Source: Arthrobacter sp. MAHUQ-56 (lineage in GTDB: Bacteria > Actinomycetota > Actinomycetes > Actinomycetales > Micrococcaceae). From it: a stretch of 64,000 nucleotides of DNA. Location: NCBI RefSeq assembly GCF_019710585.1, contig NZ_JAIFZQ010000018.1, positions 62,001 through 126,000 on the forward strand, written 5' to 3'. This document shows positions 14,071 through 41,184 of this stretch, one piece after another. Within the stretch, counting starts at the first letter, position 1. The number at the start of each line of letters is the position of its first letter. Both the position numbers and the translations under genes were made by a program. The notes below the pieces were generated by a model. That model was not told the origin of the DNA, ran no database searches, and worked only from the letters and a program-made list of their open reading frames with translations.

Positions 14071-14143
14071 GGGGCTGTGGCGCAGCTGGTAGCGCACCTG
14101 CATGGCATGCAGGGGGTCAGGGGTTCGAGTCCCCTCAGCTCCA
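14071..14143 (+). tRNA. tRNA-Ala (anticodon GGC)
   Basis: The cloverleaf folds cleanly. The acceptor stem is GGGGCTG/CAGCTCC (one G-U). The anticodon arm is CCTGC-ATGGCAT-GCAGG with anticodon GGC, reading GCC codons. The T arm is AGGGG-TTCGAGT-CCCCT. CCA is not encoded, as is usual in actinobacteria. A strong terminator follows immediately. Confidence 0.97.
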
Positions 14144-14150
14144 CCGGATA

Positions 14151-14412: not shown

Positions 14413-14485
14413 GGGGCTGTGGCGCAGCTGGTAGCGCACCTGCATGGCATGCAGGGGGTCAGGGGTTCGAGTCCCCTCAGCTCCA
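14413..14485 (+). tRNA. tRNA-Ala (anticodon GGC), second identical copy
   Basis: All 73 bases are identical to the copy 342 bases upstream, with the same GGC anticodon. It has its own candidate promoter and its own terminator, so the two are separate transcription units. Confidence 0.97.
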
Positions 14486-14495
14486 CCGTAGTAGG

Positions 14496-16794: not shown

Positions 16795-18132
16795 TTAAAG
16801 CCACCCGGTACGGCGCAGCGGCGGGTCCCCGGGGCCCGGGCGCCGCACCAGGACCTGGTTCACACCGGTCAGCCCGTTCTCGAAGCCCAGTGCGCTGGAC
16901 GCCATGTACAACCGCCACACCCGGGCGCGGCCCTCGCCGGCAAGATGGACGGCACGCTCCCAGTTCTCCTCCAGCCGGCTCACCCAGGCGCGGAGCGTCA
17001 GCGCATAGTGGCGCCGCAGGGCCTCGACGTCGAGGACCTCGAAGCCTGCGGTTTCCAGGGCCACCACCACTTCACCGAGGCTGATCATTTCGCCGTCGGG
17101 GAAGACGTACCGGGGGATGAACGAATCGGGGTCCGGGCTGGTGGGGCCGGCGTTCCAGGAGATGGCATGGTTGAGCAGCCGGCCGCCGGGGCGGAGCAGC
17201 CCGAAAAGCGCCGCAGCATACGCCGGGGTCTGCTCGCGGCCCACATGTTCGGACATGCCGATCGAGCTGATGGCGTCGAACGGCCCGTCCTGCACGTCCC
17301 GGTAGTCCTGGACGCGGATCTCCACCTTGTCCGTCAGGCCGGCGTCGGCCGCCCGTTTCCGGGCCAGCGCGGCCTGCTCCGCCGAAAGGGTGACACCCAC
17401 CACCGTGGCGCCGTACCTCGCGGCAGCGTGGAGCGCAAGGCTGCCCCAGCCGCACCCAACGTCCAGGACGCGCATGCCCGGTTCCAGGCCCAGCTTGCGG
17501 CACACCAGGTCCAGCTTGGCTTCCTGCGCGGCATCGAGGCCGGCAGCCGGGCCGCCGTCTCCTGCAGGTGTGGTCCCGTCCGGCCACACCGCGCAGGAAT
17601 AGACCATGGACGGGCCCAGCACCAGGGCATAGAAGTCGTTGCCGACGTCGTAATGATGCGAGATCGCGGCGGCATCCCGGCGGCGGGAATGCACCTTGCC
17701 CTTGCGCGTGACCCGGGACTCCTCCGGCGGCGGAACGGGATTGGGGCCCACGGCCCCGAGCCGTACCGCGGTTCGCAGCAGCAGCCACAGTTCCCCGGCC
17801 GCAGGCGGCCGGAAGGGACCCGGTTCGGCGAATTTGCCGGCCGAGCTCAGGGCCGTAAAGGCGGCGAAAATGTCTCCGGGCGCGTCAATCTCGCCGGCTA
17901 CATAGGCGCGGCTCAGGCCCAGCTGTCCCGGCGACCACAGCATCCGCCGCAGCGCCTTCCGGGACCGGAACTCCAGGACCGGTGCGTCCGGGGGCCCGGC
18001 TTCGGAGCCGTCCCACGCCCGCAGCCGCAGGGGTATCTGCGGGGTCCCGAGTACGACGGCCAGCGCCCTGGCCAGGCGTGCCGCATGTCCCGTGGTTCCC
18101 GGTTCCGCCCGTGAATCTTCCGCTGTATCCAT
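16795..18132 (-). CDS. Cyclopropane-fatty-acyl-phospholipid synthase-like methyltransferase
   Basis: SAM-dependent enzyme that probably methylates or cyclopropanates the double bond of membrane-lipid acyl chains. The 445-aa protein has an N-terminal Cfa-type domain. The SAM motif is VLDVGCGWGSLALHAA, and the family signatures ISHHYDVGNDFYALVLG and EHVGREQTPAYA follow. It is closely related to the second methyltransferase of the operon at 39326-40564 (same N-terminal LKVWDGSEAG-like block). Start is the ATG at 18132, 46 bases from the divergent monooxygenase gene, so the two promoters overlap. The exact lipid product cannot be read from sequence. Confidence 0.9.
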   Translation of the reverse strand: MDTAEDSRAEPGTTGHAARLARALAVVLGTPQIPLRLRAWDGSEAGPPDAPVLEFRSRKALRRMLWSPGQLGLSRAYVAGEIDAPGDIFAAFTALSSAGKFAEPGPFRPPAAGELWLLLRTAVRLGAVGPNPVPPPEESRVTRKGKVHSRRRDAAAISHHYDVGNDFYALVLGPSMVYSCAVWPDGTTPAGDGGPAAGLDAAQEAKLDLVCRKLGLEPGMRVLDVGCGWGSLALHAAARYGATVVGVTLSAEQAALARKRAADAGLTDKVEIRVQDYRDVQDGPFDAISSIGMSEHVGREQTPAYAAALFGLLRPGGRLLNHAISWNAGPTSPDPDSFIPRYVFPDGEMISLGEVVVALETAGFEVLDVEALRRHYALTLRAWVSRLEENWERAVHLAGEGRARVWRLYMASSALGFENGLTGVNQVLVRRPGPGDPPLRRTGWL

Positions 18133-18178: not shown

Positions 18179-19261
18179 GTGAATCCTGAGCTGGCCGACG
18201 TCGTGGTCATCGGTGCGGGCCAGGCAGGTTTGTCGGCCGCCTACCATTTGCGGCGCCGCGGCTTGGATTTCGCCGTGCTCGACGCCGAGAAAGGTCCCGG
18301 AGGTGCGTGGCGGCACCGCTGGAAGAGCCTGCGCATGGGCACCGTCAACGGGATCAGCGACCTGCCGGGCATCGCCAAGCCGGACGTTGACCCTGCCGAA
18401 GCGAGCTCCGAATTCCTCGCCCGATACTTCGGAACCTACGAGGCGGAACTGCGCCTTCCCATCCACCGGCCGGTCAAAGTCCGGGCCGTCAGCCGGGAGG
18501 ACCACAACCCGGCCGGGCGGTTGAGGATCACCACGTCGGCCGGTGCCTGGAGCGCCAAGGCGGTCATCAACGCCACCGGCACGTGGACGCGCCCGTTCTG
18601 GCCCATCTACCCGGGCCAGTCCTCGTTCCGCGGCCGGCAGCTGCACGTTGCTGACTACGTCTCCGCTGATGAGTTCAGGGGCAGGCATGTCATCGTGGTG
18701 GGCGGCGGCATCTCCGCCGTCGGCCTGCTGGATGAAATCTCCCGCGTCACGTCCACCAGCTGGTTCACCCGCAGGGAGCCGGTGTGGCGGGACGAACCCT
18801 TTGACGCCAAGGCGGGGCATGACGCCGTGGCCCTGGTGGAGGAACGCGTGCGCCAGGGGCTTCCGCCGCAAAGCGTGGTGTCGGTGACCGGGCTCATCTG
18901 GACTCCCGCCCTGCGGGCCGCCAAGGAGCGGGGCGTCCTCGAGCGGCAGCCCATGTTCACCGCCATTGAACCGGACGGCGTCCGGCGGGCGGACGGGAGC
19001 TTCCTGGCGGCCGACGCCATCCTCTGGGCCACCGGATTCCGGGCCGAACTCGAGCACCTGGCGCCGCTCCACCTTCGGGGTCCCGGCGGGGGAATCGCGA
19101 TGGAGGGTACCCGGGTGGCCGCCGAGCCGCGCGTGCACCTGGTGGGTTACGGGCCGTCGTCGTCCACCATTGGCGCCAACCGGGCCGGGCGGGCGGCGGT
19201 TGCCGCGCTGCTGGAACTGCCGGGAATGGCGACGGCGGCGGAAACGGTAACGTGGGGCTGA
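18179..19261 (+). CDS. Flavin-containing monooxygenase-like NAD(P)/FAD oxidoreductase
   Basis: Single-component flavoprotein of 360 aa. The FAD-binding motif is VVIGAGQAGLSAAYHLRRRG at the N-terminus, and the NADPH-binding motif is VVGGGISAVG near 178. ATGFRAELEHL matches the ATG motif of the family. The build resembles CzcO/FMO-type oxidoreductases rather than classical Baeyer-Villiger enzymes. The start is the GTG at 18179, inside a GGGGGAGTGA stretch. The substrate is unknown. Divergent from the Cfa-like gene and 25 bases upstream of the methyltransferase gene. Confidence 0.87.
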   Translation: MNPELADVVVIGAGQAGLSAAYHLRRRGLDFAVLDAEKGPGGAWRHRWKSLRMGTVNGISDLPGIAKPDVDPAEASSEFLARYFGTYEAELRLPIHRPVKVRAVSREDHNPAGRLRITTSAGAWSAKAVINATGTWTRPFWPIYPGQSSFRGRQLHVADYVSADEFRGRHVIVVGGGISAVGLLDEISRVTSTSWFTRREPVWRDEPFDAKAGHDAVALVEERVRQGLPPQSVVSVTGLIWTPALRAAKERGVLERQPMFTAIEPDGVRRADGSFLAADAILWATGFRAELEHLAPLHLRGPGGGIAMEGTRVAAEPRVHLVGYGPSSSTIGANRAGRAAVAALLELPGMATAAETVTWG

Positions 19262-34235: not shown

Positions 34236-34742
34236 TCAGGACTCCCAGACGATCTCGTCGTCCACCACGCCGTCTTCATCCGCCGAAGCCACCAGCACCT
34301 CGTCCGTAAAGTGCTCGCCCAGGGTGAAGTCCATGACGAAGTAGCGCTCCGGCTGGCCAGGGTAGATGCCCACGTGGCCCAGCTTCAGCGCCTTCAGGAA
34401 GACCTCGTTGGTGAGCTGGCTGCGGTCCTGGACACCGAAGACCTTCTGCAGGTGCTCGTCCTTGAGGGCATTGCAGTGGAAGTGCAGGTACTCCTGGGGG
34501 CTGGTGCCTTCCTGTTCCAGTTCCTCGGCGATCATGTCGCGCACCTCGTCCACTAGTTCGGGCAGGAACCGCAGCCGGTAGTCCACTTTGCGGAGTGCGG
34601 CTTCATCGAAGTGGTCGTGGGCGGTGATGTTCAGGTCGAGTTCCAGCGGGTGGCCGCGCAGCTCGTGCTTGGCGGCGATGAAGTGATCCCGGCCGTGGTT
34701 GAGCTCGATCTCTCCAAAGTGCTGGCTCGCTACCTTGTTCAT
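34236..34742 (-). CDS. DUF2004-like protein
   Basis: A 168-aa soluble protein starting MNKVASQHFGEIELNHGRD. The FGxIxLN opening and the C-terminal FVMDFTLGEHFTDEVLVASA block resemble DUF2004 proteins. It is acidic and has no membrane segment. Start ATG at 34742. The family has no established function. It lies between metE (convergent) and the LysR gene (same strand, 45 bases upstream). Confidence 0.7.
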   Translation of the reverse strand: MNKVASQHFGEIELNHGRDHFIAAKHELRGHPLELDLNITAHDHFDEAALRKVDYRLRFLPELVDEVRDMIAEELEQEGTSPQEYLHFHCNALKDEHLQKVFGVQDRSQLTNEVFLKALKLGHVGIYPGQPERYFVMDFTLGEHFTDEVLVASADEDGVVDDEIVWES

Positions 34743-34787
34743 AGTCTCAACATAGACCCGAAGTGCAGACCATTCCAGCGTTCCGGC

Positions 34788-35705
34788 CTAATTCACCGCC
34801 GTGCGCATCCCGGCGAGTGTTTCTGCCAGCAGATCCACGAACAGCTGTACCCTGGCCGTCTTCCTGTCGTTGATCAGCAGGGCAAAGACGTTGCGTGCCA
34901 ACCGGATTTCCGGCACGTCCAGCACCACGATTCCCTGCGGTTTGTTCCGCAGTGCCAGTTCCGGGACAAGGGCGGCACCCAGGCCCGCGGCGGCCATCTC
35001 CAGGCTCGCGTGGAAATCGTCGCTGTGCGCCACCACCCGCGGATGCAGGTTGCAGCCGGCGAAGAGCCGTTCGATGACCATCGCGTCGCTGGTGCCGGGG
35101 TGGTGCATGATCCACGGCATCTCCGAGAGGTGGTCCGCGGCCACCTTCGCATCGGCGCGGAAGCCCCAGCCCGCGGGCAGCACCACCCGGAAGTCGTCGT
35201 CGCCGATCCATTGCCGGTTGATGGTGTTGGGCCAGGCGAACCCGGTCTGTCCCACCTGGAACACGACGGCCAGGTCCAGGTCACCGCCCGTGCGCAGGCC
35301 CTGGATGGTCTGGCCGGGCTCGGCCACGGACACCCGCAGGTCGATGCCCAGGTTCTTCCACGCGGGGTTCTTCAAAATGCGGGGCAGGACGTAGGTGGCC
35401 AGGCTGGGAAAGATCCCCAGCCGCAGTTCCTGGCTTTCGGTGTCCTTCGCCCTGGACGCGGCGGCCATCAGCGCCTCGATGTCCGTGAGCACTTTGGCGG
35501 CATGGCGGGTCATGACGACGGCGGCTTCCGTGGGGACCACGCTGCGCGCCGAACGCTGGAAGAGGGTTACGCCCGTCTCCCGTTCCAGCGCCGTCATCTG
35601 TTGGGAAACAGCGGAGGCCGTATAACCAAGCGTCGCGGCCGCCGCCGCGAACGTTCCCAGCCGTGTCACTTCCAGCAGGGTTTTCAGATGCACCGGATTC
35701 ACCAC
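34788..35705 (-). CDS. LysR family transcriptional regulator
   Basis: Typical LTTR of about 305 aa. The N-terminal HTH is HLKTLLEVTRLGTFAAAAATLGYTASAVSQQ, and an effector-binding domain follows. I prefer the GTG at 35705 (VVNPVHLKTL) with GGCGGAG upstream. The frame also allows the ATG at 35747, adding 14 residues. It is divergent from the lipid-modification operon beginning at 35831 and is the obvious candidate to control it, though no operator is proven. Confidence 0.88.
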   Translation of the reverse strand: MVNPVHLKTLLEVTRLGTFAAAAATLGYTASAVSQQMTALERETGVTLFQRSARSVVPTEAAVVMTRHAAKVLTDIEALMAAASRAKDTESQELRLGIFPSLATYVLPRILKNPAWKNLGIDLRVSVAEPGQTIQGLRTGGDLDLAVVFQVGQTGFAWPNTINRQWIGDDDFRVVLPAGWGFRADAKVAADHLSEMPWIMHHPGTSDAMVIERLFAGCNLHPRVVAHSDDFHASLEMAAAGLGAALVPELALRNKPQGIVVLDVPEIRLARNVFALLINDRKTARVQLFVDLLAETLAGMRTAVN

Positions 35706-35830
35706 CAGCCCACAGTACTCCGCCGCCTTCCGGCGAAGAAGCTGCAACCCGCACCCATCCGGTGGCCACCGTGTGCCGAATTGCCCTCTGTATAACCATC
35801 ACTGGCAAATGTTCAGCAGAGGAGCATCAG

Positions 35831-37231
35831 TTGTCATCCAATCCAGCAGCAAGTGCAGGAGGACGCCGGCGCATCGCCGTGATCGGCAGCGGCGTGGCAG
35901 GACTAACGGCGGCCTACGTGCTCAACCGGGAGGACGACGTCACCCTTTTCGAAGCCGATTCCCGGCTGGGCGGCCATGCCCACACGCACGACATGCCGCA
36001 GCCTGACGGGACTGTCCTCGGCGTCGACACCGGGTTTATCGTGCACAACGAGCGCACGTACCCCACCCTGCTGCGGCTGTTTGCCGAGCTCGGCGTGGAG
36101 ACCCAGGACTCCGAGATGAGCATGTCCATCCGCTGCGACGGCTGCGGGCTGGAGTACGCCGGTGCACGAGGGGGCGCCCGCGGGATCATCGCCCGGCCGT
36201 CCAGCCTGCTGCGTGGCCGCTACCTGCTGATGCTGCTGGAAGTCACCCGTTTCTACCGCAAGGCGCGCGAACTGCTCAAGGCGGCGCCGCCGTCGGCCAT
36301 CAGCACTGAGGTGGAGGTCCCGGAACTGACGCTTGGCGAGTTTCTGGAACGGGAAAAATTCAGCCCGTACTTCATCTCCCACTTCATGACCCCCGTGGTG
36401 AGTGCGGTCTGGTCCTGCGATCCCACCACCGCCCTGGCCTATCCGGCCCGGTACCTTTTCACGTTCCTCGGCCACCACGGCCTGCTGGGTATCAAGGGCT
36501 CTCCCCAGTGGCGAACAGTCACCGGCGGCTCGGCCCGGTACGTGGAGAAGCTCGCCGCAACGCTGAACGACGTCCGGCTCAACGCTTCCGTTACCGCCAT
36601 CCGGCGGCTTCCCGAAGGAGTGGAGCTGGCAACCGCGGACGGGCTGGAACACTTTGACGCCGTCGTGATTGCCACCCATCCCGCCCAGGCACTCGGGTTC
36701 CTGGCCGACGCGACGCCCGGAGAGAAGGAAGCGCTCGGCGGGATGCCGTACTCGGTGAACCACACGGTGTTCCACCAGGACCCGGCTGTCCTGCCCGCAG
36801 CGGACAACGCCAAGGCCTCGTGGAACTACCGGCTGCCATCCTGCGACGCCCGCCCGGACAAGGTCCTGGTCAGCTACGACCTGACCCGGCTGCAACGGCT
36901 GGTGCCCGGCGACGGCCGGCGCTATTTGGTGAGCCTGGGGGAGTCGGAGCTGATCTCCGATGACGCTGTCCTCGAACGAATGGTGTACGAGCACCCGCAG
37001 TACACCCCGGAATCACTGAAGGCCCAGCAGGCCATCACCGCCCTCAGCGACGGCCGGATCGCGTACGCGGGGGCCTACCTGGGCTGGGGTTTCCATGAGG
37101 ACGGCGCGCTCTCCGGTGTCCGGGCGGCCGAAAAGCTTGGACGCACCTGGCCGGCCGCCAGGCCGCAAGACCCGCAGCACAGCTCCGGCGACGGCGAACG
37201 GGAACTGTTGTCCGCAGGGGAGGCTGCATGA
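35831..37231 (+). CDS. FAD-dependent amine oxidase-like oxidoreductase of a lipid-modification operon
   Basis: A 466-aa flavoprotein with the dinucleotide-binding motif IAVIGSGVAGLTAAYVLN at the N-terminus and the C-terminal YAGAYLGWGFHEDG. Such proteins occur beside DUF1365 and Cfa-like genes. In Rhodobacter a related flavoprotein (UfaD) introduces a double bond into methylated fatty acids. The same chemistry here is inference. The start is the TTG at 35831 with AGAGGAG eight bases upstream. A TATAAC -10-like hexamer at 35791-35796 may be its promoter. Its stop overlaps the next start (ATGA). Confidence 0.87.
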   Translation: MSSNPAASAGGRRRIAVIGSGVAGLTAAYVLNREDDVTLFEADSRLGGHAHTHDMPQPDGTVLGVDTGFIVHNERTYPTLLRLFAELGVETQDSEMSMSIRCDGCGLEYAGARGGARGIIARPSSLLRGRYLLMLLEVTRFYRKARELLKAAPPSAISTEVEVPELTLGEFLEREKFSPYFISHFMTPVVSAVWSCDPTTALAYPARYLFTFLGHHGLLGIKGSPQWRTVTGGSARYVEKLAATLNDVRLNASVTAIRRLPEGVELATADGLEHFDAVVIATHPAQALGFLADATPGEKEALGGMPYSVNHTVFHQDPAVLPAADNAKASWNYRLPSCDARPDKVLVSYDLTRLQRLVPGDGRRYLVSLGESELISDDAVLERMVYEHPQYTPESLKAQQAITALSDGRIAYAGAYLGWGFHEDGALSGVRAAEKLGRTWPAARPQDPQHSSGDGERELLSAGEAA

Positions 37232-37977
37232 GCAGCGGGCGCACCATGTCCACCAGTGCAGCCATCTACCGCACCTCGATCGCCCACGTGCGGCACTCCC
37301 CGCTGAAGAACGCCTTCACCTACCGCAGCTACAGCTGGTTTGTCGACGTCGACCGCCTGCCGCGCCTGCCGCTCCCGCTCCGGCCCCTGGCGGTCTTCCG
37401 CGCCGCCGACCATCTCGGCGATCCGGACGCCAGCATCCGGTCCAACGTGGAGCGATACCTGCGAACCCAGGGCATCGAGCCCGACGGCGGTCCCATCCAC
37501 ATGCTGGCCAGCGCACGGGTGTTCGGCTACGTCTTCAACCCGCTGACCCTGTTCTGGTGCTACCGCTCCAGCGGCGAGCTCCAGTGTGTGGTGGCCGAGG
37601 TCCACAACACCTACGGCGAGCGGCACTGCTACCTGCTGCAGACGGACCCCGCGGGGCGCGCCTCCGTTCCGAAAGCGTTCTACGTGTCGCCCTTCAACGA
37701 CGTCGACGGGCACTACCGGATGAAGCTGCCCGCCCCCGGCGAACGGCTCGCCGTCTCGATCGTCCTGGAACGTGTTGGGCACCGGCCGTTCGTCGCCACC
37801 ATGGATGGCACGCGCCGGCCGGCCACGGTCCGCAACATCCTGGCTGCGGCATGCGCCGTGCCGGCCGCGCCACTGCTGGTATCCGCCCTGATCAGGGTGC
37901 AGGGCGTTAAACTCTGGGCACGGCGCCTGCCCGTCGTCGCAAGACCACACCACCCTTCACAGGAGGCAGTTCAATGA
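37228..37977 (+). CDS. DUF1365 family protein
   Basis: A 249-aa protein with the DUF1365 motifs HVRHSPLKNAFTYRSYSWFV, VFGYVFNPLTLFWCY and VSPFNDVDGHYRM. The family has no proven activity but occurs with Cfa-like methyltransferases and amine-oxidase-like flavoproteins. A role in handling modified acyl chains is inferred. ATG at 37228 overlaps the upstream stop, and its own stop overlaps the next gene, so the whole operon is translationally coupled. Confidence 0.92.
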   Translation: MSSGRTMSTSAAIYRTSIAHVRHSPLKNAFTYRSYSWFVDVDRLPRLPLPLRPLAVFRAADHLGDPDASIRSNVERYLRTQGIEPDGGPIHMLASARVFGYVFNPLTLFWCYRSSGELQCVVAEVHNTYGERHCYLLQTDPAGRASVPKAFYVSPFNDVDGHYRMKLPAPGERLAVSIVLERVGHRPFVATMDGTRRPATVRNILAAACAVPAAPLLVSALIRVQGVKLWARRLPVVARPHHPSQEAVQ

Positions 37978-39329
37978 CAATGACGGACGACAACGGAACC
38001 ACGACGGCGGCCGCCTCCGGGAGCGTCCCGTACACAGTGCCGCGCCCTCCCGCGGTCATCGATGCTGCGGTCTGGCCGGGCATCGCAGCGCTTCCGGCCG
38101 GATTCAGGGCCGACGTTGCGGCGCGCATTGCCGCCGGCATCTTCAAGGCCGCGGTCCGCCATCTTCCGCTGGAGGTAAGGTACCCCGACGGCGAGGTCCT
38201 GGGATCCGCGCCCGCCGGCGCGCCCGTTATGACCATCCACCGGCCCGGTGACTTCGCCCGCCGCCTCGGCGACGGGGGCCTGATCGGATTCGGCGAGTCC
38301 TATATGGCAGGCGACTGGGACGCGGACAACCTCACCGCTTTCCTTGAAGTCTTTGCTGCCCGGGCCGGGACCCTGGTCCCGGAGCCGCTGCAGAAACTGC
38401 GCGCCCTGTTCCTGCCGCGCCAGCCACGCAGCGAACGCAATTCCCTGGAGAACACGCGTTCCAACATCTCCAGGCACTACGACCTCTCCAACGAACTGTT
38501 CGCCACGTTCCTCGACCCCACCATGTCGTACTCCAGCGCACTGTTCCCGTCCGCGGAAGGTGCCGTCCGCAACTCCGACCGGGACGGCTTCGCCGCCGCC
38601 CAGCAGGCGAAGATCGACCGCCTGCTGGACAAGGCCGCCGTCGGGCCCGGAACCCGGCTCCTGGAGATCGGCACCGGCTGGGGCGAGCTGGCCCTGCGCG
38701 CCGCCGCCCGCGGCGCCACCGTCTATTCGGTGACGCTGTCCAGCGAACAGCAGGAACTCGCCCGGAAACGGGTCGCCGAGGCCGGGTATACCGACGCCGT
38801 CACGATCGAGCTCAAGGACTACCGCGCCGTTGAAGGCGAGTACGACGCAGTGGTCTCGGTCGAAATGATCGAAGCCGTGGGCTACCAGTACTGGGCCACC
38901 TATTTCCAGACCATCGAACGGCTCCTGGCGCCGGGCGGCAAGGTGGCCATCCAGGCCATCACCATCGCCCACGACCGCCTCCTGGCCACCCGCACCGGAT
39001 ACACCTGGGTGCACAAGTACATCTTCCCGGGCGGGGTGATCCCCTCGGTGCGGGCCATCGAGGAAGTCACCGAGCAACAGACCGGGCTGCAGGTGCGCGA
39101 ACGGCTGGCCTTCGGGGAGCATTACGCCGAGACCCTGCGGCTGTGGGAGGAGCGCTTCATGGAGAGGCAGGAAGAGGTTTCGGAGCTGGGCTTCGATGCA
39201 GTCTTCCAGCGCATGTGGCTGTTCTACCTCTGCTACTCCAGGGCAGGTTTCGCGTCCGGCTACCTGGATGTCCAGCAGATCGTGCTGGACCGGAAGAGAA
39301 GCGCACCCGGGCGCGGGGCCGCGCTGTGA
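37974..39329 (+). CDS. Cyclopropane-fatty-acyl-phospholipid synthase-like methyltransferase (first of pair)
   Basis: A 451-aa SAM-dependent lipid methyltransferase. Signatures are NISRHYDLSNELFATFLD, LLEIGTGWGELALRAAARG (SAM site), VEMIEAVGYQYW and YIFPGGVIPSVRAI. The YIFPGG element and longer C-terminus match true Cfa/UfaM-type enzymes more than the shorter paralogue downstream. Start at ATG 37974; ATG 37980 is possible. Coupled to both neighbours by four-base overlaps. Confidence 0.93.
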   Translation: MTMTDDNGTTTAAASGSVPYTVPRPPAVIDAAVWPGIAALPAGFRADVAARIAAGIFKAAVRHLPLEVRYPDGEVLGSAPAGAPVMTIHRPGDFARRLGDGGLIGFGESYMAGDWDADNLTAFLEVFAARAGTLVPEPLQKLRALFLPRQPRSERNSLENTRSNISRHYDLSNELFATFLDPTMSYSSALFPSAEGAVRNSDRDGFAAAQQAKIDRLLDKAAVGPGTRLLEIGTGWGELALRAAARGATVYSVTLSSEQQELARKRVAEAGYTDAVTIELKDYRAVEGEYDAVVSVEMIEAVGYQYWATYFQTIERLLAPGGKVAIQAITIAHDRLLATRTGYTWVHKYIFPGGVIPSVRAIEEVTEQQTGLQVRERLAFGEHYAETLRLWEERFMERQEEVSELGFDAVFQRMWLFYLCYSRAGFASGYLDVQQIVLDRKRSAPGRGAAL

Positions 39330-40564
39330 CGGCCGCCCTGGCGGAGACCATCGCCGATGCCCTCCGGCCCGTGGTCGGCGGGGACCTGCCCGTCCGCCTG
39401 AAGGTCTGGGACGGCTCCGAGGCAGGACCCGCCGACGCTCCCGTGGTCCGGCTCAACAGCCCCGACGCCATCCGGCGCCTCCTGTGGGCCCCGGGGGAAC
39501 TGGGCGCAGCCCAGGCGTACGTTACCGGTGAGCTGGACATCGACGGCGACCTCAATTCGGCCCTGCAGCAGCTGTGGGAGGTGGTGCGCCGGCGCCGCCT
39601 GTCCGGGATCCGGCCCACCCCCGCGGTAATCGCCGGCATCGGAAGGATCGCCCGGGCCGCCGGCGCACTGGGCACCCCGCCCGCGCCGCCGGCCACGCAG
39701 GCCAAAGTCTCCGGACGCCTGCACAGCCTGATCCGCGACCGTGCGGCGATCAGCCACCACTATGACCTCAGCAACGATTTCTACGGATTGATCCTGGACC
39801 CGCAGATGGCCTACTCCAGCGGCTACTGGACCGAGGCTCCGGGGCCTGGATACGGCGTCGAGGATGCCCAGCGCGACAAGCTGGACCTGGTGTGCCGGAA
39901 GATCGGCCTCACACCCGGCATGCGGATGCTGGATGTCGGCTGCGGCTGGGGTTCCCTGAGCCTGCACGCCGCACGGCACTACGGCGCCACAGTTGTGGGT
40001 GTCACGCTGTCCGCGGAACAGAAGGCCTTCATTGACGGCCGGATCAGGGAGCACGGACTGGAGGACCGGGTGGAGATCCGGGTGCAGGATTACCGCGAGA
40101 TCCCGGACGGACCCTTCGACGCCGTCGCCTCCCTGGAAATGGGGGAGCATGTGGGGCAGAAAAACTACCCCATCTATGCCAGGGCGCTGTTCGACAACCT
40201 GGTGCCGGGCGGCAGAGTCCTGGTCCAGCAAATGTCGCGCCGCGGCCGGCACCCCGGCGGCGGCCCCTTCATCGAGTCCTTCATCGCCCCGGACATGCAC
40301 ATGCGTCCCGTGGGGGAGACACTGGACTTCCTGGAAGGCGCAGGCCTTGAGGTGGAGGGCGTCGAGGGAATGCGCAGGCACTACGTGCACACCCTGGAAG
40401 CCTGGTACGCCACGTTCGAGGAAAACCAGGAACGCGCCGAGGCCATGATGGGTCCGGAAGTCGTCCGGGTGTGGCGGCTGTACCTGGTGGGTGCCCTCCG
40501 GAGCTTTGCCGAGGGGCGGATGGGGGTGGAGCAGATCCTCTGCAGCAGGCCCGCCCCGCTCTAG
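39326..40564 (+). CDS. Cyclopropane-fatty-acyl-phospholipid synthase-like methyltransferase (second of pair)
   Basis: A 412-aa paralogue with MLDVGCGWGSLSLHAARHYG (SAM site), ISHHYDLSNDFYGLILD and SLEMGEHVGQKNYPIYARAL. It is nearer in sequence to the enzyme at 16795-18132 than to its operon neighbour. Start is the GTG at 39326, overlapping the previous stop. A good terminator follows. The two methyltransferases may act on different double bonds or positions, but this cannot be told from sequence. Confidence 0.92.
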   Translation: MTAALAETIADALRPVVGGDLPVRLKVWDGSEAGPADAPVVRLNSPDAIRRLLWAPGELGAAQAYVTGELDIDGDLNSALQQLWEVVRRRRLSGIRPTPAVIAGIGRIARAAGALGTPPAPPATQAKVSGRLHSLIRDRAAISHHYDLSNDFYGLILDPQMAYSSGYWTEAPGPGYGVEDAQRDKLDLVCRKIGLTPGMRMLDVGCGWGSLSLHAARHYGATVVGVTLSAEQKAFIDGRIREHGLEDRVEIRVQDYREIPDGPFDAVASLEMGEHVGQKNYPIYARALFDNLVPGGRVLVQQMSRRGRHPGGGPFIESFIAPDMHMRPVGETLDFLEGAGLEVEGVEGMRRHYVHTLEAWYATFEENQERAEAMMGPEVVRVWRLYLVGALRSFAEGRMGVEQILCSRPAPL

Positions 40565-40615
40565 CGGGCCCTGCCGCCTTGGCATCTTCGCCCGGGCGTG
40601 CGTTTAGTCACCCAT

Positions 40616-40649
40616 GGGGGTTCCGGAGGTCACTCCGGGGCCCCTTTTT
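40616..40649 (+). terminator. Intrinsic terminator of the lipid operon
   Basis: GGGG and TTCCGGAG pair with CTCCGGGG and CCCC around GTCA, and TTTTT follows directly. Confidence 0.8.
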
Positions 40650-40817
40650 GGTGCCTGCGGGGCGCCCAGGCCGAGGCGCGACACGCCGTCTTTTCCGCGA
40701 CACGCTGGCCGTTAAATGTGGCTAAGTACTCCACAGGATGTGGATTCCGTCCGCAAAAACGCCGGGATTCCGGACATTTTGAAGGCTACTCCCTGTGGAT
40801 TAAAGGTGCATTAAATG

Positions 40818-40876
40818 ACATACTTGTAATACATCATCTTGGGGTTCCGAAGAGGCGCCTGCACTACATGTAGTAT
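40818..40876 (+). promoter_or_regulatory. Candidate NrdR-box pair upstream of nrdHIEF
   Basis: ACTACATGTAGT (40863-40874) is a perfect palindrome resembling the core of the NrdR consensus. ACATACTTGTAATACA (40818-40833) is a weaker copy with its centre 43 bases upstream, about four helical turns. TAGTAT at 40871-40876 could be the -10. NrdR represses class I reductase genes in response to ATP/dATP. Confidence 0.45.
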
Positions 40877-40938
40877 CTACATACAGCTTGGACGGGGACA
40901 CCGAACCAGCGAAGATTTCGACTAAGGGGACAGCGACA

Positions 40939-41184
40939 ATGACCGTAACGGTTTACACGAAGCCTGCTTGTGTTCAGTGCAACGCCACCTACCGTGCTCT
41001 CGACAAAAAGGGCATCACCTACCAGAGCGTGGACATCTCCCAGGACGCCGAGGCCCTCGAGCGCCTGAAGGCACTTGGCTACATGCAGGCACCCGTTGTG
41101 GTCACGGACCAGGACCACTGGTCAGGCTTCCGCCCCGACAAGATCGAGGAACTTGCCCTCTCCGCTGTCACCTCCGTGGCCTAG
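40939..41184 (+). CDS. nrdH: Glutaredoxin-like protein NrdH
   Basis: Electron donor for the class Ib ribonucleotide reductase, reduced by thioredoxin reductase. The 81-aa protein has the redox motif CVQC ([14 protein letters not shown]) and the NrdH C-terminal [12 protein letters not shown]. Start is the ATG at 40939 after AAGGGGA. First gene of nrdHIEF. Confidence 0.97.

What the first reader, a model, noticed from the sequence alone, without database searches (positions are those of the whole stretch)
35831..40564. Fully overlapping operon for unusual fatty acids (flavin oxidase, DUF1365, two Cfa-like enzymes)
Four genes joined by four-base overlaps combine an amine-oxidase-like flavoprotein with methyltransferases. 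Related Rhodobacter genes (ufaD, ufaM) make methylated, desaturated and furan fatty acids. With two methyltransferases, this operon may make methyl-branched, cyclopropane or furan lipids not expected in an iso/anteiso-rich actinobacterium. The divergent LysR gene is a likely switch.
Basis: partly seen in the sequence, partly recalled or inferred. Interest (0 to 1): 0.5.

Follow-up and report, generated by a model that had tools for sequence, protein, structure and literature searches.

The report
Furan fatty acid operon, two methylases

Summary
In detail: four genes (35831-40564, +) joined by three 4-base overlaps. The order is UfaD-like, UfaO-like, UfaM-like (CFA1: same clade and active-site signature as methylases of proteobacterial operons of this type), then a second methylase, CFA2. 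Furan lipid is the best prediction. Cyclopropane is less likely from CFA1 and CFA2, which both have Gln at E. coli Cfa His266; a Cfa-like gene with the canonical residues lies elsewhere in the window (16795-18132, -).

The divergent LysR is probably not the switch: 26 of 28 genus genomes without DUF1365 still carry it. A SigK-type promoter (CCATCC-N15-CCGAAT, 35755-35781) precedes the operon; similar sites precede 69 of 97 related flavoprotein genes, and the genome has a distant sigK-rskA pair with the same motif upstream.

Similar operons are common in actinobacteria (CFA2 in 46 of the 80 best loci), so this is a variant of a known pathway. Least explained is CFA2: in the genome samples searched, close relatives occur only beside DUF1365, and its solved-structure relatives are Cfa synthases. 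It is a candidate second methylase.

The parts
35755..35781 (+). SigK-type (ECF) promoter CCATCC-N15-CCGAAT, ending 49 bases before the first start codon
   Evidence: Only exact match in the window, 0.04 expected; best upstream site scores 10 or more of 12 in 69 of 97 loci against about 4% of Markov-shuffled upstream regions; 9 exact copies in the genome, 0 of the reversed control. Consensus recalled, not read.
35831..37231 (+). UfaD-like FAD oxidoreductase (amine-oxidase family), predicted desaturase of methylated acyl chains
   Evidence: Pfam PF01593 112.8 bits; 32-40% identity to nine flavoproteins of proteobacterial operons of this type
37228..37977 (+). UfaO-like DUF1365 protein, predicted O2-dependent furan-forming step
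   Evidence: Pfam PF07103 242.6 bits; 13 columns invariant across 12 proteins, nine of them proteobacterial; UfaO has DUF1365 in PMC7380195; AlphaFold2 model pLDDT 88
37974..39329 (+). CFA1: UfaM-like SAM methyltransferase, predicted first methylation with double-bond shift
   Evidence: Clade with seven proteobacterial methylases that follow DUF1365, SH-aLRT 99; shared EM[IF]EAVG and Q266
39326..40564 (+). CFA2: second SAM methyltransferase of unknown product, separate clade with Q266 and M268
   Evidence: Clade support 99; E236, H240, Q266, M268 in 48 of 48; close relatives only beside DUF1365 in the genus and phylum samples
40616..40645 (+). Terminator-like hairpin after the operon
   Evidence: 13 pairs, 9 G-C, followed by a T run; number of such sites in the region no more than shuffles give
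34788..35708 (-). Divergent LysR-type regulator; neighbour, probably not specific to the operon
   Evidence: PF00126 and PF03466; present in 26 of 28 genus genomes without DUF1365
16795..18132 (-). CFA3: stand-alone Cfa-like enzyme with the canonical Cfa residues tested; candidate cyclopropane synthase
   Evidence: CMAS 301.5 bits; C139, E239, H240, H266, I268 and Y317 present

Best explanation
This is a SigK-controlled furan fatty acid operon. Shown by sequence: gene content and order, family and clade membership, the promoter motif, and a sigK-rskA pair elsewhere in the genome. Inferred from Lemke et al. 2020: CFA1 (UfaM-like) methylates the cis double bond of a phospholipid acyl chain using SAM and shifts the double bond; the flavoprotein (UfaD-like) desaturates it to a conjugated methyl-diene, probably with O2 as electron acceptor; the DUF1365 protein (UfaO-like) adds an oxygen atom from O2 to close the furan ring. 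The unsaturated chain would come from the genome's membrane desaturase. Least certain is CFA2: most likely a second methylation on a product or intermediate of the same pathway, such as the other ring carbon, giving a dimethyl furan. SigK would turn the operon on under an unidentified, perhaps oxidative or light-type, stress.
For: Families and operon. Roles of UfaM, UfaD, UfaO and FufM: PMC7380195 sections 4, 8, 9 and 10 read. CFA1 groups with seven proteobacterial methylases that follow DUF1365, SH-aLRT 99, quick search without bootstrap, with the same residues: A240 in 78 of 78 and 7 of 7, Q266 in 77 of 78 and 7 of 7. Flavoprotein 32-40% identical over 410-446 positions to nine proteobacterial partners. 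A Halomonas UfaM, encoded consecutively with ufaD and ufaO, gave the methylated intermediate in E. coli (PMC12089945 passages). Desaturase present. Promoter. sigK-rskA: SigK model 275.3 bits over a cut-off of 226, RskA N and C domains, same motif 39 bases before the first possible start. CFA2 within 3 kb of DUF1365 in 12 of 12 genus genomes that have it at 82% identity or more and in 3 of 3 at 57% or more in a phylum sample of 119.
Against: No lipid data. R. sphaeroides and R. palustris sequences could not be fetched, so the UfaM clade rests on operon position in other proteobacteria, and the split is deep (35-43% identity). The SigK consensus was recalled; its paper is not held. 28 of 97 loci have no site of 10 or more of 12, among them 6 of 8 Rhodococcus/Rhodococcoides loci, though three of these eight (L017, L018, L082) and L058 have an exact copy elsewhere in the locus. 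R. capsulatus, which has a SigK-like RpoE, has no homologue of RSP_1090 or RSP_1091. CFA2's role is not demonstrated; 41 of 53 DUF1365-bearing genus genomes lack it. Gln266 as a sign against cyclopropane is inference: E. coli expressing Halomonas ufaM also showed cyclic fatty acids, from its own cfa or not.
Confidence: 0.73

Rival explanations
1. The operon makes methyl-branched or methyl-dienoic fatty acids, but the DUF1365 protein does not close a furan here; the end product is a methylated mono- or diene lipid.
For: In R. sphaeroides the methylated monoene and diene are real intermediates that can accumulate. DUF1365 identity to nine proteobacterial copies is only 24-32%.
Against: A DUF1365 gene lies beside the flavoprotein gene in 79 of 80 loci, and 13 columns are invariant across the 12 proteins aligned.
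Confidence: 0.13
2. The operon makes 10-methylstearic (tuberculostearic) acid, as once claimed for UfaA1 of M. tuberculosis.
For: CFA1 is in the clade of the mycobacterial methylase encoded before a SigK gene (L058). Recombinant UfaA1 was reported to give 10-methylstearate in crude extract (passages of PMC5660069).
Against: The 10-methylstearate genes bfa (tms) are described as distinct from ufaA1 (passage of PMC7791843). Two BfaB-like proteins, labelled so by a 4-base overlap with an upstream gene (Pfam gave no hit to the held part of that gene), lie outside the CFA1 and CFA2 clades. The flavoprotein here is of the amine-oxidase family.
Confidence: 0.06
3. CFA2 is a cyclopropane synthase, so the operon makes both a furan and a cyclopropane lipid.
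For: CFA2 is nearest to the actinobacterial stand-alone Cfa-like clade, 50% identical to CFA3, keeps E239 and H240 in 48 of 48, Y317 in 46 of 48 and C139 in 38 of 48 (Ser here).
Against: Gln at 266 and Met at 268 in 48 of 48, against His and Ile in 13 of 13 other Cfa-type proteins compared. The genome already has CFA3. But the 13 include two BfaB-like proteins, so His266 alone does not prove cyclopropane synthesis.
Confidence: 0.2
4. The divergent LysR protein controls the operon.
For: It is adjacent and divergent, and a LysR hit is present in the 15 Micrococcaceae loci of the 80.
Against: Its orthologue stays in 26 of 28 genus genomes without DUF1365. The SigK-type motif lies between the two genes.
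Confidence: 0.15

Closest known systems
ufaD-ufaO-ufaM furan fatty acid pathway of Rhodobacter (Cereibacter) sphaeroides and Rhodopseudomonas palustris (Lemke et al. 2020, PMC7380195)
   Same: Flavoprotein, DUF1365 protein and UfaM-type methylase; in R. palustris the three are RPA2571, RPA2570 and RPA2569.
   Different: Extra Cfa-like methylase CFA2 in the operon; SigK-type promoter, whereas in R. sphaeroides furan genes belong to the RpoE-ChrR regulon (passage of PMC6852236); actinobacterial host.
Actinobacterial FAD-DUF1365-CFA(-CFA)-DUF1295 operons (Streptomyces, Rhodococcus, Nocardia and others; mycobacterial Rv0449c-Rv0447c, gene order recalled)
   Same: Same gene families in the same order; CFA2 type in 46 and DUF1295 in 56 of 80 loci; a SigK and RskA hit in the same locus in 36 of 80.
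   Different: Here DUF1295 and sigK-rskA are not adjacent, and a LysR gene is.
FufM, the 9M5-furan methylase of R. palustris (RPA0924)
   Same: Proposed role: a second methylation in the furan pathway, present in a subset of pathway genomes.
   Different: FufM is 38% identical to plant LIME1 (PMC10940516). CFA2's solved-structure relatives are led by Cfa synthases, unlike the coclaurine-N-methyltransferase-like second methylases of two proteobacterial clusters.
BfaA/BfaB (TmsA/TmsB), 10-methylstearate synthesis in mycobacteria
   Same: Flavoprotein plus Cfa-like methylase in overlapping genes.
   Different: Different methylase clade; here the flavoprotein is of the amine-oxidase family and a DUF1365 gene is present.

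Membership tests
UfaD-UfaO-UfaM furan fatty acid pathway | Flavoprotein, DUF1365 protein and UfaM-type methylase encoded together | tested here: met
   published definition read in PMC7380195
UfaD-UfaO-UfaM furan fatty acid pathway | Methylase belongs to the UfaM lineage rather than the Cfa lineage | tested here: met
   CFA1 with seven operon methylases of proteobacteria, SH-aLRT 99; UfaM itself (RSP2144, RPA2569) could not be fetched, so this is met by proxy
UfaD-UfaO-UfaM furan fatty acid pathway | Source of cis-unsaturated acyl chains in the host | tested here: inconclusive
   One FA_desaturase gene, 92 bits over a cut-off of 29.7, beside a gene that reads by eye like a ferredoxin reductase (no family search); its product was not tested
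UfaD-UfaO-UfaM furan fatty acid pathway | Furan fatty acid in the lipids | not testable with these tools
   Needs fatty acid methyl ester analysis
Canonical cyclopropane fatty acid synthase (Cfa) | C139, E239, H266, I268, Y317 of E. coli Cfa (roles recalled) | tested here: not met
   CFA1 and CFA2 of the window: H266 is Q and C139 is S in both; CFA3 has all
FufM dimethyl-furan methylase | Sequence membership of the FufM / LIME1 family | tested here: inconclusive
   FufM sequence not held; CFA2's solved-structure matches are led by Cfa synthases (7.2e-53) over coclaurine N-methyltransferase (6.8e-12)
BfaA/BfaB (TmsA/TmsB) | Methylase in the BfaB clade | tested here: not met
   CFA1 and CFA2 lie outside the branch of the two BfaB-like proteins L104 and L128, whose label rests on gene arrangement
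SigK regulon | CCATCC-N15-CCGAAT upstream and a SigK/RskA pair in the genome | tested here: met
   consensus recalled, so assignment to SigK rests on conservation and on the copy before sigK; control by SigK itself not tested

The most novel reading that the evidence does not exclude
CFA2 founds a family of furan-pathway methylases not descended from FufM: a Cfa-type enzyme that independently acquired the UfaM-like His-to-Gln change and adds a second methyl group, so that actinobacteria make dimethyl-furan (or another doubly methylated) lipids. By extension, the actinobacterial SigK regulon, including the mycobacterial Rv0449c-Rv0447c operon whose UfaA1 was credited with tuberculostearic acid, is at core a furan fatty acid stress response.
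Probability: 0.33. Interest if true: 0.65.

Novelty: new variant of a known kind. Interest (0 to 1): 0.45.

Why it matters
Furan fatty acids are described as radical and singlet-oxygen scavengers; their bacterial route was worked out genetically in two alphaproteobacteria (PMC7380195). The evidence here extends the gene set, with a testable stress-sigma promoter, to a large group of soil actinobacteria, and gives the DUF1365 gene a likely role there. It also suggests what the mycobacterial SigK operon may do: I found no held paper with both 'furan fatty acid' and 'ufaA1' (0 papers), none listed with both 'furan fatty acid' and 'Rv0449c', and 8 with 'furan fatty acid' and 'Mycobacterium tuberculosis', of which I looked at passages of two. 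CFA2 is a concrete, assayable enzyme of unknown product tied to this pathway.

Tried and rejected
LysR as main switch: rejected, because its orthologue is kept in 26 of 28 genus genomes without DUF1365. Two operon cyclopropane synthases: held unlikely on active-site residues. 10-methylstearate: held unlikely on clade and flavoprotein family. CFA2 as a FufM orthologue: not supported (against 126, 127), but FufM itself was not compared. Consensus sigma-70 promoter: none found in 34600-41000.

Fold of the DUF1365 protein: the model resembles small beta barrels (a designed barrel Z 7.8; nitrobindin, a fatty-acid-binding-like protein and the spirocyclases OssO and OlmO about 7; Foldseek best E 3.9e-3, none at 0.001). 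Z under 8 may mean only a common arrangement, so no mechanism was drawn from it. No credible solved relative by sequence (best E 0.32).

Mosaic history: the FAD tree places the window and two relatives (L155, L156) with one-methylase genomes, the CFA1 tree with two-methylase genomes (AU p 0.011 and 2.4e-22; quick trees, long-branch warnings, groups named after seeing the identities). The 3' half seems to have been exchanged between lineages; direction not settled.

Other motif copies in the genome: 7 of 9 gave no clear regulon, except one 143 bases before a gene that reads like an ABC-transporter ATPase (no family search).
Full report
The four genes lie at 35831-40564 on the + strand, with 4-base overlaps at 37228, 37974 and 39326 and a terminator-like hairpin at 40616-40645 (no more such sites than shuffles give). 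Families: Amino_oxidase, DUF1365, CMAS, CMAS. The genome, 4.57 Mb in 26 contigs, has one DUF1365 gene. The PF02353 search gave five matches, four over the cut-off; three are full Cfa-like proteins, all in this window: CFA1, CFA2 and CFA3.

In R. sphaeroides and R. palustris, UfaM methylates cis-vaccenate, UfaD desaturates the product, UfaO uses O2 to give the furan, and FufM adds a second methyl in R. palustris (PMC7380195, sections 4, 8, 9 and 10 read). RPA2571, 2570 and 2569 are ufaD, ufaO and ufaM, the same order as genes 1-3 here. In a Halomonas the three genes are also consecutive, and its UfaM gave the methylated intermediate in E. coli (passages of PMC12089945).

Spread. The search for related loci confirmed 560 relatives of the flavoprotein and kept the best 80. 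In those 80, hits were found to DUF1365 in 79, CFA1 type in 76, CFA2 type in 46, DUF1295 in 56, SigK and RskA both in 36, and the LysR in 15, all Micrococcaceae. In an even sample of 119 genomes of the window's phylum DUF1365 occurs in 17; in 81 genomes of the own genus, in 53. So the operon, even with two methylases, is not unusual in actinobacteria.

Which methylase is UfaM? In a quick maximum-likelihood tree of 61 of the 174 methylases collected, CFA1 and its actinobacterial orthologues form one clade (100) that joins seven methylases lying after DUF1365 in proteobacterial operons (99), apart from E. coli Cfa, CFA2 and CFA3. At E. coli Cfa positions, after removing duplicates, CFA1-type proteins have A240 in 78 of 78 and Q266 in 77 of 78; the seven proteobacterial ones have A240 and Q266 in 7 of 7. 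CFA2-type proteins have H240, Q266 and M268 in 48 of 48, and C139 in 38 of 48 (Ser in this window). The 13 other Cfa-type proteins compared, CFA3 and two BfaB-like proteins included, have C139, H240, H266 and I268 in 13 of 13. The catalytic meaning of these positions is recalled, and His266 in the BfaB-like proteins shows that it does not by itself mean cyclopropane. CFA2 is sister to the stand-alone clade (97), so its Gln266 looks independently gained; this is inference from the tree.

CFA2 is tied to the pathway in the samples searched. At 82% identity or more it occurs in 12 of 81 genus genomes, in all 12 within 3 kb of DUF1365. In the phylum sample, matches of 57% or more occur in 3 of 119, each within 3 kb of DUF1365 (weaker matches, 52% and less, were taken as other Cfa types). 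The other 41 DUF1365-bearing genus genomes lack it, which fits an accessory step. The likeliest known parallel is FufM, described as present in a subset of pathway organisms. In two proteobacterial clusters (Acinetobacter L094, Burkholderia L098) a second methylase sits beside DUF1295; both resemble coclaurine N-methyltransferase. FufM is 38% identical to plant LIME1 (PMC10940516 section 25 read); that LIME1 belongs to the coclaurine-methyltransferase family is recalled. CFA2 instead matches Cfa synthases best. A dimethyl-furan role for CFA2 is therefore a proposal of analogous, not orthologous, function.

Regulation. An exact CCATCC-N15-CCGAAT lies at 35755-35781, 49 bases before the start codon, and is the only one in the window (0.04 expected). 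Upstream of the flavoprotein in 97 loci the best site scores 10 or more of 12 in 69, against about 4% of Markov-shuffled upstream regions; exact sites were found in 15 of 98. The loci are related, so these are not probabilities; 28 of 97 lack a good site, including 6 of 8 Rhodococcus/Rhodococcoides loci, where another gene often precedes the flavoprotein gene and three loci have an exact copy elsewhere. In 23 of 30 Micrococcaceae loci, chosen, the hexamers are more conserved than the spacer (0.92 against 0.62 mean majority). The genome has 9 exact copies and none of the reversed control pattern. One lies just upstream of an ECF sigma gene on contig C13, over 300 kb from either contig end, that exceeds the SigK model's cut-off and is followed by a gene with RskA N- and C-terminal domains. 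In M. tuberculosis sigK is reported as autoregulated through the Rv0449c promoter (passage of PMC7509140). A photooxidative stress study notes that the R. capsulatus RpoE and ChrR resemble SigK and RskA, but also that R. capsulatus lacks homologues of RSP_1090 and RSP_1091 (passages of PMC7074977). That the motif is SigK's consensus is recalled; the source paper was not held and a text search for it found nothing relevant. The LysR orthologue is in 78 of 81 genus genomes at E 1e-90, including 26 of 28 without DUF1365, so it is not specific to the operon; it could still contribute.

Substrate. The genome has one membrane desaturase beside a gene that reads like a ferredoxin reductase and no FA_desaturase_2, so unsaturated chains are plausible but not shown.

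History. Protein identities and trees suggest that the front half of this operon belongs with one-methylase relatives and the back half with two-methylase relatives; the 3' half seems to have been exchanged.

Limits. No lipid measurement exists here. Rhodobacter and Rhodopseudomonas sequences could not be obtained. The Agrococcus furan acid (PMC9323897, passages) is a different, 12-carbon compound whose gene cluster is only proposed, so it neither confirms nor excludes this pathway in actinobacteria.

Noticed in passing
window 16795-18132 (-): Third Cfa-like gene (CFA3) with the canonical Cfa residues tested, divergent from an ORF at 18179-19261 that reads like a flavin monooxygenase; candidate cyclopropane synthase.
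   Followed up: partly
L003 10123-11482: CFA1 of Pseudarthrobacter sp. Fe7 is split over reading frames (frameshift or sequencing error).
   Followed up: no
L082 8313-9531: CFA2 of the Rhodococcus erythropolis plasmid is in two pieces and not annotated; possibly a frameshift.
   Followed up: no
L075 5883-9952: In an Actinophytocola MAG, CFA2 and DUF1295 are divergent from the flavoprotein gene, a rearranged form of the operon.
   Followed up: no
L187 1195-1221 (own genome C13:706194-706220): Another exact SigK-type motif, 143 bases before a gene that reads like an ABC-transporter ATPase; possible further regulon member.
   Followed up: no
window 14071-14145 and 14413-14487: Two tRNA-Ala (GGC) genes close together, which explain repeated peptide stretches in spurious open reading frames there.
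   Followed up: yes
L098 30-2577 and L094 5996-7833: DUF1295 next to coclaurine-N-methyltransferase-like methylases in proteobacterial clusters of this type; candidates for FufM-type genes.
   Followed up: partly
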